Source of the DNA: Buttiauxella agrestis ATCC 33320
GTDB lineage: Bacteria > Pseudomonadota > Gammaproteobacteria > Enterobacterales > Enterobacteriaceae
NCBI RefSeq assembly: GCF_000735355.1
Contig: NZ_JMPI01000022.1
Location: forward strand, 25-64,024
Reading direction: 5' to 3'
Length of the DNA: 64,000 bases
The notes beneath the pieces were generated by a model. It had not been told where the DNA came from, made no database searches, and was given only the letters and a program-made list of their open reading frames with translations. Positions 57,837 to 64,000 of this stretch are shown piece after piece (the first letter of the stretch is position 1; each line of letters begins with the position of its first letter). Made by a program: the position numbers and the translations under genes.

Positions 57837-57913
57837 TGGTACGCCCTACAGGGCTCGAACCTGTGACCTACGGCTTAGAAGGCCGTTGCTCTATCCAACT
57901 GAGCTAAGGGCGC
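57837..57913 (-). tRNA. argU: tRNA-Arg (anticodon UCU)
   Basis: The 77-nt minus-strand sequence starts GCGCCCTTAGCTCAG and ends GGTTCGAACC, TGTAGGGCGTACCA. The cloverleaf is complete, with D arm GCTCAGTTGGATAGAGC, anticodon loop CTTCTAA (UCU) and encoded CCA. It reads AGA/AGG codons. It is divergent from folD. In E. coli the same tRNA gene next to folD is the DLP12 prophage attachment site. No integrase is present beside this copy. Confidence 0.97.
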
Positions 57914-59935: not shown

Positions 59936-59995
59936 AGCATAAAAACGCGTAAATTCAGAAAACGCGATAGCGGCGTCAACACCGGGGGATTGTCT

Positions 59996-61495
59996 ATGAG
60001 TTTGTTATCCAGTATTACAAAATCGTTATCTAAGTTGTCGATGATAGGCCGCGCATTAATGTTGCCTATCTCATTGCTACCGGCTGCGGGTCTGTTGCTG
60101 GCCTTTGGCGATAAATTCCATTTACCGTTAATGATGAACGCGGGCGGGGTGATTTTCGACAACCTGCCGATGCTGTTTGCCATTGGTTCGGCGGTCGGTC
60201 TGGCGGCGGAATCTGGGATTGCCGCGCTGTCGGCGGCGGTGTCGGTGTTTATCATTAACGTGACTATTGGCACTGTTTTACACATCACGCCGGAAATGGC
60301 GGCGGCGGGTGGAAAATACGCCATGGTGGTCGGTATTCCGACCTTGCAGATGGGCGTATTTGGTGGCCTGATTTCCGGCATTCTGGCGGCGTGGTGCTAC
60401 AACAAATTCCACACCATGCAGTTGCCTGAATTCCTCGGCTTCTTCTCGGGTAAGCGCTTTGTGGCTATCGCGACCGCATTCTTGTCGTTCCTACTGGGTA
60501 TGGCGCTGCCGTGGGTCTGGTCATACATTCAGTCGGGGATTGATTCGCTGTCGGTAATTGTCAACGGAGACAATCAGGCACTTTCCACGTTTATCTTTGG
60601 GCTGGTTGAACGCGCGCTGATCCCGCTGGGTTTGCACCATATCTGGTATCCGTCATTCTGGTATTCGTTTGGTGAATACACCACAAACGCAGGCCAGGTC
60701 ATTCACGGCGATCAGACAATCTGGTTCAAAATGTTGGAGGAGGGTGTGAAATCCTTTAGCAGCGATAGCTACCACAACGCCGGTAAATTCATGCAAGGTG
60801 AGTTCCCGTTGATGTTGTTCGCGCTGCCGGCGGCATGTCTGGCGATGTACCATGAAGCGAACACCAAAAATAAGAAAATTGCCTCCGGTATTTTGTTCTC
60901 TGCGGCGCTGACCTGTTTCCTGACGGGCATCACCGAACCGGTAGAATTTACCTTTATCTTCGTTGCGCCAATTCTGTATGTGTTCAACGCGATTATGGCC
61001 GGGCTGTCTTATATGTGTATGTATTTGCTGCATGCGCATATCGCCAAGTCGTTCTCCGCAGGGATGATTGACTACATTTCCTTTGGTATTTTGCCTTCGT
61101 TCAACGGTTATCAGACTAACTTCCTGTCGGCTGTGATTGTCGGTATCCCAATGGCGTTGATTTACTACTTCACATTCCGCTACGTGATTCGCCGTTTCGA
61201 CGTGAAAACGCCGGGCCGTGCGGATGTTACCGCTAACGCGAATGACAAAACGGACACCGAACTGGCGGGGGATATTATCGGCCTGCTGGGGGGCGCGGAG
61301 AACATTAACTCCGTCGGTTCTTGCATCACACGTCTGCGTCTGGAAGTGGAAAAAAGCGAGCATGTCGATAAAGACGGCCTGAATAGTCTCGGTGCGCGCG
61401 GCGTGGTGTTTGTCGGTGATTCGGGTATTCAGGTGATATTTGGTGCTCGAGCGCAGTTTATCGCACAGACGATGTCCACAATGATTGGCAAATAA
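59996..61495 (+). CDS. PTS EIICB permease, glucose/maltose superfamily (MalX-like)
   Basis: A 499-residue fused EIIC-EIIB. The EIIC part (about 1-390) has the GRALMLPISLLPAAGLLLAFG opening, GLHHIWYP, and the family's TGITEPVEFTFIFVAP loop. The EIIB part ends the chain with the phospho-cysteine Cys443 in GSCITRLRLEV and GVVFVGDSGIQVIFG. It belongs to the MalX/PtsG/NagE group and needs an EIIA from elsewhere (Crr in enterics). ATG at 59996 follows GGGGGA. The operator block upstream and the repressor gene downstream make a self-contained unit like malX-malI. The sugar is unknown. Confidence 0.88.
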   Translation: MSLLSSITKSLSKLSMIGRALMLPISLLPAAGLLLAFGDKFHLPLMMNAGGVIFDNLPMLFAIGSAVGLAAESGIAALSAAVSVFIINVTIGTVLHITPEMAAAGGKYAMVVGIPTLQMGVFGGLISGILAAWCYNKFHTMQLPEFLGFFSGKRFVAIATAFLSFLLGMALPWVWSYIQSGIDSLSVIVNGDNQALSTFIFGLVERALIPLGLHHIWYPSFWYSFGEYTTNAGQVIHGDQTIWFKMLEEGVKSFSSDSYHNAGKFMQGEFPLMLFALPAACLAMYHEANTKNKKIASGILFSAALTCFLTGITEPVEFTFIFVAPILYVFNAIMAGLSYMCMYLLHAHIAKSFSAGMIDYISFGILPSFNGYQTNFLSAVIVGIPMALIYYFTFRYVIRRFDVKTPGRADVTANANDKTDTELAGDIIGLLGGAENINSVGSCITRLRLEVEKSEHVDKDGLNSLGARGVVFVGDSGIQVIFGARAQFIAQTMSTMIGK

Positions 61496-61512
61496 TTTCC
61501 CCGTCATCCTTC

Positions 61513-61541
61513 AAGCCGCCGATATGTTTATGGGCGGCTTT
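61513..61541 (+). terminator. Hairpin between the PTS and repressor genes
   Basis: AAGCCGCC-N12-GGCGGCTT, perfect 8-bp stem with a short T tract (CTTTA). It may reduce read-through into the repressor gene. Confidence 0.55.
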
Positions 61542-61581
61542 ATGGTATTGATAACAAGGATATTTGGTGCAAAGGAACGGG

Positions 61582-62598
61582 ATGAAAAAGGTCAATATTA
61601 TTGATGTAGCACAACTGGCTGGAGTTTCTGTCTCCACCGTTTCTTTGGTGCTGCGCCAAAAAGGGAAGATCTCCGAGGCGACCATCGAAAAGGTCAATGC
61701 TGCGATTAAACAACTTGGCTATGTCCATAATGTCGCGGCGGCGAATCTGCGTTCCAGCACCTCCAATCTCATCGGCCTGATCATCCGCGATTTTAACGAT
61801 TCTTTCTGCGTTAATGTGATGGCAAGTGTAGTTCACTACCTTGAGAAACAAGGTTATATGGTGTTTCTCGGCCATCCGCAGGATGACACGCAACAGCTTC
61901 AACAATGCTTAACGTCGTTCACGCAACAAGGTGTGGCTGGGGTGATTTACCTGGATGCCAACCACCGTTTAGCCTCGATTCCGTCACTTATTTCTGAATG
62001 CCCGTTGCCGACGGTGATTATCGCGGAGTCCACGGTGAGCAGCCATCGCGACGTGATTGGGCGAGACAATCGCCAGGCCGGGAACCAGGCGACGCGCTAT
62101 CTGCTCGATCGCGGCCACCGCAATATCGCTTATCTGGGCGGTACGGCGGCAAATCTCATGCGCGAGGAACGCTTGCTCGGTTATCGCAACGCGCTGGCGC
62201 AGTACGATTTACCGTTCCGTGAAGAGTGGGCGCCAGTTTGTGAAAATGATACGGAAGCGGCGGCCCGTTTAACGCGCCAGTTGCTTGAGAAAAACAGCAA
62301 AATCACCGCCATGCTTTGCCATTCCCCCTCGGCCATTATTGGCTGCCTGAATGGGATTGCGCAGGTTGGGCGTACCGTCGGTAAAGACGTGTTTTTAACG
62401 CAGCAGGTTTCGTTGATTGGTTTTGAAGACATGATGAACATTAATCTTACTTCGCCACGGTTTACCTACGTTTCGGCATCCAGTGAAGAAGCGGGAAGAC
62501 AAGCCGCAACGCTGATTGTGAACAAGATTAAAGAGCCGACGTTACCGCCGCAGAAGATTATTATTTCCGGGGAGTTGGTTCAGCGGGAATCGGCTTAA
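61582..62598 (+). CDS. LacI-family repressor, MalI-like
   Basis: A 338-residue LacI/GalR regulator. The HTH and hinge VNIIDVAQLAGVSVSTVSLVLRQKGKISEATIEKVNAAI are closest to E. coli MalI (IHDVALAAGVSVSTVSLVL), and the sensor domain shows LIGLIIRDFNDSFCVNVMAS, IGRDNRQAGNQATRYLLDRGHRNIAYLGG and QQVSLIGFEDMMNIN. ATG at 61582 follows AAGGA; TTG/GTG codons six or fewer codons upstream are weaker. It probably represses the upstream PTS gene through the double palindrome at 59906-59935. The effector is unknown. Confidence 0.9.
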   Translation: MKKVNIIDVAQLAGVSVSTVSLVLRQKGKISEATIEKVNAAIKQLGYVHNVAAANLRSSTSNLIGLIIRDFNDSFCVNVMASVVHYLEKQGYMVFLGHPQDDTQQLQQCLTSFTQQGVAGVIYLDANHRLASIPSLISECPLPTVIIAESTVSSHRDVIGRDNRQAGNQATRYLLDRGHRNIAYLGGTAANLMREERLLGYRNALAQYDLPFREEWAPVCENDTEAAARLTRQLLEKNSKITAMLCHSPSAIIGCLNGIAQVGRTVGKDVFLTQQVSLIGFEDMMNINLTSPRFTYVSASSEEAGRQAATLIVNKIKEPTLPPQKIIISGELVQRESA

Positions 62599-62940
62599 CT
62601 AAATGAGCAAAAAACACATCCTCCAAAGCATCGTTTAGCATAAGGTAGTGAGGGGGTTATATGATAATGCCTTTCACTACTTATTCAGAAAAAGATGTTG
62701 TTGGATACAAAAATGTGAGTCATGTTGCATTCATGTAATAAAAGTTTTTGTTAAGTCAAATTTAAAACCTATATGAAATTCTTTATAAACTAGATGTCAA
62801 TTAAGGATATGTATTCTAATTTTCCTTGAGTAAGGAGAAGGAGTAAGATAGATAAATCATAAAAAAACACTTCAAATGGCCACTCACTACACCGAGTGGG
62901 GGATGATTTTGTCATCCACTAAAACAACGTACTGGAATCT
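62599..62940. other. AT-rich intergenic region before the DUF4011 gene
   Basis: 342 bases with no supported gene and clearly lower GC than the left flank. At 62642-62687 an imperfect repeat (GGTAGTGAGG / CCTTTCACTACTT) may terminate the repressor gene. At 62880-62899 and 62901-62917 two neighbouring hairpins (CCACTC/GAGTGG and GGATGA/TCATCC) lie within the last 60 bp before the next start. An AAGGAGAAGGAG-like purine run at about 62834 has no frame behind it. Confidence 0.4.
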
Positions 62941-64000
62941 ATGTATATGTCTGATAATGAAAGTTCACCTTTTCAAAATGGCAGCTTATCGTTAGAACAA
63001 AAGCTTGACCGAGCACGTACAGAACTTCTTGACCTAACAGCACGTAACAAACTTCTCAATATTCCACGGACTAAAACAGCTAAGCAACTTGAGATCGTGG
63101 ATGAGCGTTCTGATGAAATCTATCGGTTGCTGGTGAAAGAAGGACGAGCGTTTACTTTTCTTCCTGGCCGAGCAGGAAAAAAAGGTGAAGTGATTGACGA
63201 TAACGATGCTGAAGGCAGTAATGAAGAGTCGGATGAACAGACATATGATTTTGACGTCAACTACGATAATTATGAACTAAAAGCTGAACATCAAGATACA
63301 AAATTCCAGACTCGCCTAACGTCAAAGGGCTTACAGAAGCGGTTGCTCGATCTGTACCATGACTCAAGGACTCTTGAGGAAGATCAGGGTGTAAACATTC
63401 TGTTCCTAACTCTGGGTTCTCTCAAATGGATCGATCCTAACAATAAAGAAAATCTTCGGTATGCACCGATAGTTTTGTTGCCTGTAAATCTCGAACGTGG
63501 CACAGCCAGAGAAAGATTTAAACTAACAATTAGGCAAGACGATATAATTCCAAATTTATCATTGGAAACTTATTTAGAGCGGGTACATGAAATTATTTTA
63601 CCTGAAATGAATATGGATGATGATTTTGATATCTCTAGTTATATGTCCCAAGTTGCCGACTCTATTGTTATAAAAAAAGATTGGGAAGTATTGGAGAATG
63701 ATATCACTCTTGGTTTTTTCTCCTTCTCAAAATTTCTAATGTATCGCGACCTTGATCCTGCAAACTGGCCTGAGAACGAACGCATAACAGATCAACCAAT
63801 TATCCAATCTCTTATGGTTAATGGTTTTGATTGTAGAGATGAAATGTTCCCGGATGATGCACCAATAGATTCGTTAATTCCACCGCGTGATATGCTGCAT
63901 ATCATGGATAGCGATACATCACAAACATTAGCTATACATGATGTTCGTAAAGGTAAAAGCCTTGTTATTCAAGGTCCTCCGGGAACGGGGAAGTCTCAGA
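62941..64000 (+). CDS. DUF4011-type superfamily 1 helicase/ATPase, 5' part (cut by window end)
   Basis: An open frame from ATG 62941 (or ATG 62947) runs 353 codons without a stop to the window edge. The N-terminal DUF4011 domain is visible: LDRARTELLDLTARNKLLNIPR (about residues 22-43 in part), VNILFLTLGSLKW and RYAPIVLLPVNLERG. It is followed at the edge by a Walker A motif, VIQGPPGTGKSQ with Lys351. Proteins of this kind are 1,300-2,000 residues long, with an SF1 helicase core and often a C-terminal Vsr- or Mrr-like nuclease plus DUF3320. One such protein (HheA) is a reported single-gene phage-defence system. The gene is AT-richer than its left neighbours, a sign of transfer. The ribosome site is poor. 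Confidence 0.88.
   Translation, partial: MYMSDNESSPFQNGSLSLEQKLDRARTELLDLTARNKLLNIPRTKTAKQLEIVDERSDEIYRLLVKEGRAFTFLPGRAGKKGEVIDDNDAEGSNEESDEQTYDFDVNYDNYELKAEHQDTKFQTRLTSKGLQKRLLDLYHDSRTLEEDQGVNILFLTLGSLKWIDPNNKENLRYAPIVLLPVNLERGTARERFKLTIRQDDIIPNLSLETYLERVHEIILPEMNMDDDFDISSYMSQVADSIVIKKDWEVLENDITLGFFSFSKFLMYRDLDPANWPENERITDQPIIQSLMVNGFDCRDEMFPDDAPIDSLIPPRDMLHIMDSDTSQTLAIHDVRKGKSLVIQGPPGTGKSQ

What the first reader, a model, noticed from the sequence alone, without database searches (positions are those of the whole stretch)
62941..64000. Truncated DUF4011-helicase gene at the window edge: probable anti-phage defence island
The last kilobase encodes a clear DUF4011 N-terminus (LLDLTARNKLLNI) leading into GPPGTGKSQ of a superfamily 1 helicase. 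Established knowledge: DUF4011-helicase-Vsr proteins (HheA) give phage defence, and such genes cluster in defence islands. Seen here: low GC, no homologous neighbour to the left, and a start right after the core-type PTS/LacI pair. Inference: an accessory defence locus begins here and continues past the window.
Basis: partly seen in the sequence, partly recalled or inferred. Interest (0 to 1): 0.85.

Follow-up and report, generated by a model that had tools for sequence, protein, structure and literature searches.

The report
Lone anti-phage helicase-nuclease gene
The gene cut off at the window edge is complete in the genome and belongs to a known type of bacterial anti-phage protein, but it sits alone between ordinary housekeeping genes rather than opening a defence island.

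Summary
In detail: window 62941-64000 is the start of an intact 1857-codon gene that ends 4.5 kb past the window. It carries DUF4011, a split SF1 helicase, an MTES_1575 (Vsr-type) nuclease and DUF3320, with the active-site motifs intact. Its best defence profile is PADLOC's candidate PDC-S37 (1868 bits). It passes NCBIfam's 'anti-phage protein ProA' cut-off (1630 vs 1500), though that profile's first ~346 positions have no counterpart here, and fails the Hhe cut-off (1111 vs 2000). The 'defence island' inference fails: the right-hand neighbours are rnk, a GntP permease and other metabolic genes; PADLOC touches 2 of 10 flanking proteins, both by generic or weak matches. In the genus (closest named match Buttiauxella sp. 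B2), 2 of 12 genomes carry it at this site; in 8 of 12 lacI and rnk are 30-273 bases apart. GC3 is 32% against 57-60% for three neighbours. It is a horizontally acquired, single-gene defence-type cargo: a new member of a known kind. Phage resistance was not tested.

The parts
62941..64000 (+). 5' part of the DUF4011-SF1 helicase-MTES_1575 nuclease gene (PDC-S37 / ProA-like); the whole gene is 1857 aa and ends at the contig position that corresponds to window coordinate 68514 (L002:2966-8539)
63022..63576 (+). DUF4011 domain, residues 28-212
   Evidence: Pfam PF13195, 143.5 bits
63973..63999 (+). Walker A / helicase motif I, GPPGTGKSQ, residues 345-353; eight of its nine residues invariant and the ninth nearly so in 53 sequences; the rest of the helicase, the nuclease (residues 1527-1624) and DUF3320 (1687-1734) lie beyond the window
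62599..62940 (+). A+T-rich (32.5% GC) gap of 342 bases between lacI and the gene; no promoter-like match; one terminator-like hairpin on the + strand at 62883-62900; by blastn only its last 17 bases align with the G010 copy
61579..62598 (+). left flank: LacI-family regulator, 30-273 bases from rnk in 8 of 12 genomes of the genus (empty sites)
59990..61495 (+). left flank: PTS EIIC-EIIB permease

Best explanation
It is a single-gene anti-phage helicase-nuclease of the DUF4011 / SF1 / MTES_1575 class (PADLOC PDC-S37, close to NCBIfam ProA), acquired horizontally as a bare gene between lacI and rnk. Likely working: the UPF1/Dna2-like SF1 motor (motif I at 345-353, motif II at 1230-1233) loads on phage DNA that exposes ends or single strands, helped by DUF4011 at the N-terminus, a large helical arm (about residues 400-1190) inserted inside the first motor domain, and two C-terminal winged helices. 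ATP-driven translocation brings the Vsr-type nuclease (E1571, D1573) onto the DNA, which is cut. Shown here: domains, intact motifs, solitary accessory placement. Inferred: that it restricts phages, that DNA is the target, the end/single-strand trigger, and the order of steps.
For: PDC-S37 1868 bits; ProA 1630 bits over a 1500 cut-off; DUF4011, MTES_1575, DUF3320 and AAA_11/AAA_12 by Pfam. Walker A, Walker B, motifs III, V, VI and the nuclease E-C-D core are invariant or nearly so in 53 sequences, this one included. C-terminal model: best PDB match by E-value Dna2 nuclease-helicase (7e-10), then Aquarius, SETX, IGHMBP2 and UPF1 helicases; two C-terminal helix/strand-hairpin units at pLDDT about 90, which fits the 'wHTH overlapping DUF3320' and 'Vsr REase' of PMC3710099 (passages read). 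Patchy: 2 of 12 genomes of the genus, 6 of 295 of the family at 57% identity or more, with empty sites in 8 of 12. GC3 32% versus 57-60%.
Against: No phage test exists for this protein. PDC-S37 is only a candidate class (meaning of 'PDC' recalled). The first ~346 positions of the ProA profile have no counterpart here, and the tree places clear ProA proteins on another branch. No clear defence gene lies beside it. Models have pTM 0.40 and 0.42 and the Dna2 match has a TM-score of only 0.21 and rmsd 15, so the fold match rests on local similarity and the domain arrangement is unreliable; the N-terminal model has no PDB match at E <= 0.001.
Confidence: 0.75

Rival explanations
1. It is the first gene of an anti-phage defence island.
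For: In P. aeruginosa a DUF4011 gene flanks core defence hotspot 1 in every isolate (PMC10250203, section 17 read). Some relatives lie next to an integrase (G156) or what look like integrases and transposases by eye (G193, G096, G217). Three of 106 nearest neighbours of homologs are C5 DNA methylases.
Against: Flanks on both sides are metabolic or regulatory genes; of 10 flanking proteins only an ArsR-type HTH protein (Csa3 models) and an aldo/keto reductase (E 0.0006) hit PADLOC at E <= 0.001. The same flanks are continuous in 8 of 12 relatives. Among 106 nearest neighbours of homologs no PADLOC family matches more than 3 at E <= 1e-10; 80 families match at least one, of which 25 are listed, so how many neighbours have some defence match is not known.
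Confidence: 0.04
2. It is an Hhe (DUF4011-helicase-Vsr) protein proper.
For: Same order of DUF4011, helicase and MTES_1575; Hhe NCBIfam 1110.8 bits; 33% identity over 1643 columns to annotated E. coli Hhe.
Against: Below the Hhe cut-off of 2000 bits while E. coli Hhe scores 2739; PADLOC Hhe 794 bits against 1868 for PDC-S37; separate branch in a quick tree. The E. coli Hhe showed no DUF3320 at E <= 1e-8, this protein has one at 3e-17.
Confidence: 0.05
3. It is a DNA-repair or anti-plasmid helicase-nuclease rather than an anti-phage one; phage defence would be incidental.
For: Nearest solved folds are Dna2, SETX, IGHMBP2, UPF1; in some rhizobia a homolog is followed directly by a Mre11/Rad50-like pair (Metallophos + AAA_27).
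Against: Patchy, horizontally moving, low-GC gene, unlike a repair gene; defence profiles of NCBIfam and PADLOC fit it best. The rhizobial pair usually occurs without it: AAA_27 protein in 33 of 81 genomes of one genus (E <= 1e-100), this gene in 7 of 81 (E <= 1e-300), both in 6.
Confidence: 0.16

Closest known systems
PADLOC PDC-S37 (PDLC05009), candidate anti-phage protein
   Same: Best-scoring PADLOC profile (1868 bits); covers DUF4011, helicase, nuclease and C-terminus
   Different: The profile is 1550 long and fits 1577- and 1591-aa short-form proteins nearly end to end; this protein is of a long form with about 265 more residues in the helical insert
NCBIfam NF058533 'anti-phage protein ProA' (perhaps the protein of the system called Prometheus; that link is recalled and came from no call)
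   Same: Above the curated cut-off (1630 vs 1500); aligned from profile position 347 to 1902
   Different: Lacks the ~346-position N-terminal part that the 1974-aa G161 protein has (2194 bits); 31-35% identity to G161; other branch in the tree
Hhe (DUF4011-helicase-Vsr; NF042953)
   Same: Same order of DUF4011, SF1 helicase and MTES_1575 nuclease
   Different: 1111 bits, cut-off 2000; 33% identity to annotated E. coli Hhe; that Hhe showed no DUF3320 match at the threshold used
Dna2 / UPF1-like SF1 helicases
   Same: Motor motifs, and best Foldseek E-value for the C-terminal half (7e-10 to Dna2, TM-score 0.21)
   Different: Motor interrupted by about 800 mostly helical residues before motif II; nuclease at the C-terminus and of Vsr type

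Membership tests
ProA (NF058533) | Whole-protein score above curated cut-off 1500 | tested here: met
   1630.3 bits
ProA (NF058533) | Full-length match including the N-terminal ~346 profile positions | tested here: not met
   matches start at profile 347; G161 matches 2-1882
ProA (NF058533) | Groups with clear ProA proteins in a tree | tested here: not met
   G161, G084, G363 on another branch (quick tree with long-branch warnings)
PDC-S37 | PADLOC profile PDLC05009 as best match over most of the profile | tested here: met
   1868.2 bits in three stretches; only the best one's range is shown, 934-1846 on profile 640-1543 of 1550
PDC-S37 | Confers phage resistance | not testable with these tools
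   needs plaque assays
Hhe (NF042953) | Score above curated cut-off 2000 | tested here: not met
   1110.8 bits
SF1 helicase | Motifs I, II, III, V, VI intact | tested here: met
   from residues 345, 1230, 1251, 1423 and 1461; conserved in 53 sequences; motif names recalled
Vsr/MTES_1575 PD-(D/E)XK nuclease | Domain above Pfam cut-off with intact acidic core | tested here: met
   126.3 bits (cut-off 38.2); D1559, E1571, D1573 invariant in 53 sequences; that these are the catalytic residues is inferred
Defence island | Further defence genes adjacent | tested here: not met

The most novel reading that the evidence does not exclude
The 1857-aa long form is a separate single-gene defence family, neither Hhe nor ProA, defined by an internally repeated helical module in the arm that interrupts its motor (AFGTDW at 818-823 and 965-970), and in some lineages it spreads as a bare gene without any integrase, dropped between ordinary chromosomal genes by recombination, so that searches based on defence islands would pass it over.
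Probability: 0.3. Interest if true: 0.45.

Novelty: new member of a known kind. Interest (0 to 1): 0.28.

Why it matters
It settles that the window ends in a complete, accessory defence-type gene and not in an island. Solitary placement between chromosomal genes in a few strains, with clean empty sites in the others, is a natural comparison for testing what this poorly studied helicase-nuclease class does, and it shows that a member can stand without defence neighbours.

Tried and rejected
Island hypothesis: tested by flanking gene content and PADLOC; rejected for this locus. Mobile element: no flanking direct or inverted repeats that stand out and no tRNA in L002-L004; the only tRNA of the window (Arg, 57837-57913) is 5 kb away. 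Obligate partner: 661 neighbours from 65 loci clustered; the widest cluster spans 7 organism labels, all Mesorhizobium or Microvirga (AAA_27 protein), the next 6 (its Metallophos partner), then 5 (integrase-like). In 81 genomes of that rhizobial genus the AAA_27 protein is in 33 and this gene in 7 (at different E limits). Leader RNA: over L002:2500-9200 Rfam finds only the known rnk leader on the other strand; the hairpin before the start codon, seen here and in G010, is not evident in the other 17 upstream regions folded, and one part of it scores as terminator-like (2 such sites found in 600 bases, 0.4 expected); I drew no conclusion from it. N-terminal model against PDB: coiled-coil proteins at E above 0.001, UPF1 only at E 0.1. 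Literature: ten searches. No paper holds PDC-S37. In the listings I saw no title or abstract start that ties ProA to a helicase; those papers' ProA passages were not opened. Two papers hold both DUF4011 and phage: of PMC10250203 I read passages and section 17; PMC6589727 I did not open. Passages in PMC12629846, PMC12447246, PMC12390725 and PMC12846349 name Prometheus as a defence system without saying what protein it is. PMC9519451 and PMC13092281 held no DUF4011. The ProA-Prometheus link stays recalled.

Rows dropped: of 68 loci, four (L036, L038, L051, L056) gave no ORF match in my gene finder. The motif count used 53 distinct proteins of 58 over 1500 aa. The neighbour tally used one locus per organism label: 58 loci, 106 nearest neighbours of at least 150 aa within 3 kb, out of 390 collected within 4.5 kb. 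The tree used 22 of those 53 proteins (23 ids named, L063 was not among them) plus 16 fetched ones, 38 rows.

Mended on checking: gap length 342 not 343; long-form excess about 265 not 310 residues; gene DNA identity to G010 taken over the gene alone.

Full report
What is there. The window maps to G000:C22:25-64024 of a 4.73-Mb genome. The frame that opens at window 62941 runs on past the window and closes at L002:8539, window coordinate 68514: 1857 aa, no internal stop.

Domains. Pfam gives DUF4011 (28-212), AAA_11, AAA_12, AAA_19 and AAA_30 helicase matches (around 327-387 and 1222-1481), MTES_1575 endonuclease (1527-1624) and DUF3320 (1687-1734), all above their curated cut-offs. Helicase motif I is at 345-353, motif II DEAS at 1230-1233, motif III at 1251-1262, motifs V and VI from 1423 and 1461 (motif names recalled); the nuclease core has D1559, E1571 and D1573. 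These are invariant or nearly so in 53 distinct sequences. Before motif II lie about 800 residues, almost all helical in the model (pLDDT 79, pTM 0.42), with a weak internal repeat (24% over 144 aa; AFGTDW at 818 and 965). The C-terminal model (pLDDT 69, pTM 0.40) matches Dna2 and UPF1-type helicases by E-value, with TM-scores near 0.2, and ends in two well-predicted helix-and-hairpin units. PMC3710099 (passages read) describes in MTES_1575 an SF-I helicase, Vsr REase and two wHTH, the wHTH overlapping DUF3320.

Which family. PADLOC: PDC-S37 1868 bits, Hhe 794. NCBIfam: ProA 1630 (cut-off 1500), Hhe 1111 (cut-off 2000). The ProA profile aligns only from position 347 on; the G161 protein, 1974 aa, matches it from position 2 and scores 2194. 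In a quick tree of 38 proteins the window protein falls with 14 other long-form proteins in one group (support 100); the short-form proteins I labelled (1566-1727 aa) lie beside it, and ProA-type (G161, G084, G363) and Hhe proteins on separate branches. The tool warned of long branches, so the deep order is unsure. I therefore call it PDC-S37, long form, related to ProA; not Hhe.

Context. Left: folD, YdjM-type protein, PTS EIIBC, LacI regulator. Right: rnk, GntP permease, alpha/beta hydrolase, ArsR-type HTH protein, aldo/keto reductase, RNase T2, then anion-transporter-like and citrate-lyase-like genes (read by eye, not profiled). PADLOC at E <= 0.001 hits 2 of these 10 proteins: the HTH protein (Csa3 models, in my reading a generic HTH match) and the aldo/keto reductase (E 0.0006). 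No island.

Distribution. In the genus 2 of 12 genomes carry it (own and G010, 84% identity). rnk is found in 12 of 12 and the lacI ortholog in 10 of 12; in the eight genomes with lacI but without this gene, the lacI and rnk matches lie 30-273 bases apart. In G002 and G011 no such lacI lies by rnk. In the family, 35 of 295 genomes match at E <= 0.001; 6 of these (own included) at 57% identity or more, one of them (G193) lacking the first ~346 residues; the other 29 are weaker or partial matches. The five others lie at unrelated places: G115 between a YidB-like and an EamA gene, G156 with an integrase nearby, and G193, G096 and G217 with what look by eye like transposases or integrases. The ProA family search over the order gave 9 of 295 genomes above the cut-off and 0 of 14 control genomes above it. 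On plasmids 357 records match at E <= 1e-30, of which 5 cover 80% of the query; phages: 1 of 50,697 records at E <= 1e-10. With the last 2137 bases as query, 284 of 5426 E. coli genomes match and none over 80% of the query; the 15 rows shown cover 56 bases and are annotated Hhe or AAA protein.

Acquisition. GC 41.7% and GC3 32% against 51-56% (four neighbours) and 57-60% (three). The G010 copy is also low (42.8%, flanks 49%). Own and G010 share the gene and its right-hand junction, but by blastn their upstream gaps align only in the last 17 bases. Over the gene alone DNA identity is 78.0%, against 84.6-87.2% for five flanking genes. The nearest relative by flank identity, G005 (89-90%), has an empty site. 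Either an old insertion was lost several times, or the gene moved between species, perhaps by recombination in the flanks; the data do not decide.

Mechanism. Best reading: an ATP-driven SF1 motor that recognises exposed DNA ends or single strands of a replicating phage and feeds DNA to a Vsr-type nuclease. This follows from the domains and from analogy with other helicase-nuclease defences (titles and abstract starts seen: Hna, Druantia III, Gabija); nothing here shows phage restriction, polarity or substrate.

Verdict. Observation confirmed, protein kind right, island wrong. A new member of a known kind, of modest interest.

Noticed in passing
L047:15187-19913 (also L008, L041, L045, L064): In several Mesorhizobium and a Microvirga the long-form gene is followed within 72-245 bases by a Metallophos + AAA_27 pair (Mre11/Rad50-like). 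In 81 genomes of L047's genus the AAA_27 protein is in 33 (E <= 1e-100), the helicase-nuclease in 7 (E <= 1e-300), both in 6, side by side in 5, four of these identical copies. L014's genome has the helicase-nuclease and no AAA_27 match.
   Followed up: partly
L129 (G193:C1:1716000-1733500): A 72%-identical copy lacks its first ~346 residues and has what look by eye like transposase genes directly upstream: a decayed relative.
   Followed up: no
L002:9059-9167 (-): Intact Rfam rnk leader (RF01771) upstream of rnk, on the strand opposite to the inserted gene.
   Followed up: no
window 59990-62598: The PTS-lacI block is itself absent next to rnk in 2 of 12 genomes of the genus (G002, G011), so the folD-rnk interval has varied more than once.
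   Followed up: partly
L140 (G386): A 1959-aa DUF4011 relative has a second stretch near its N-terminus (39-157) that matches the C-terminal nuclease, as if the nuclease were present at both ends.
   Followed up: no
window 62883-62900: A terminator-like hairpin on the + strand lies 40 bases before the start codon, inside the gene's own leader; whether it attenuates expression was not examined.
   Followed up: no
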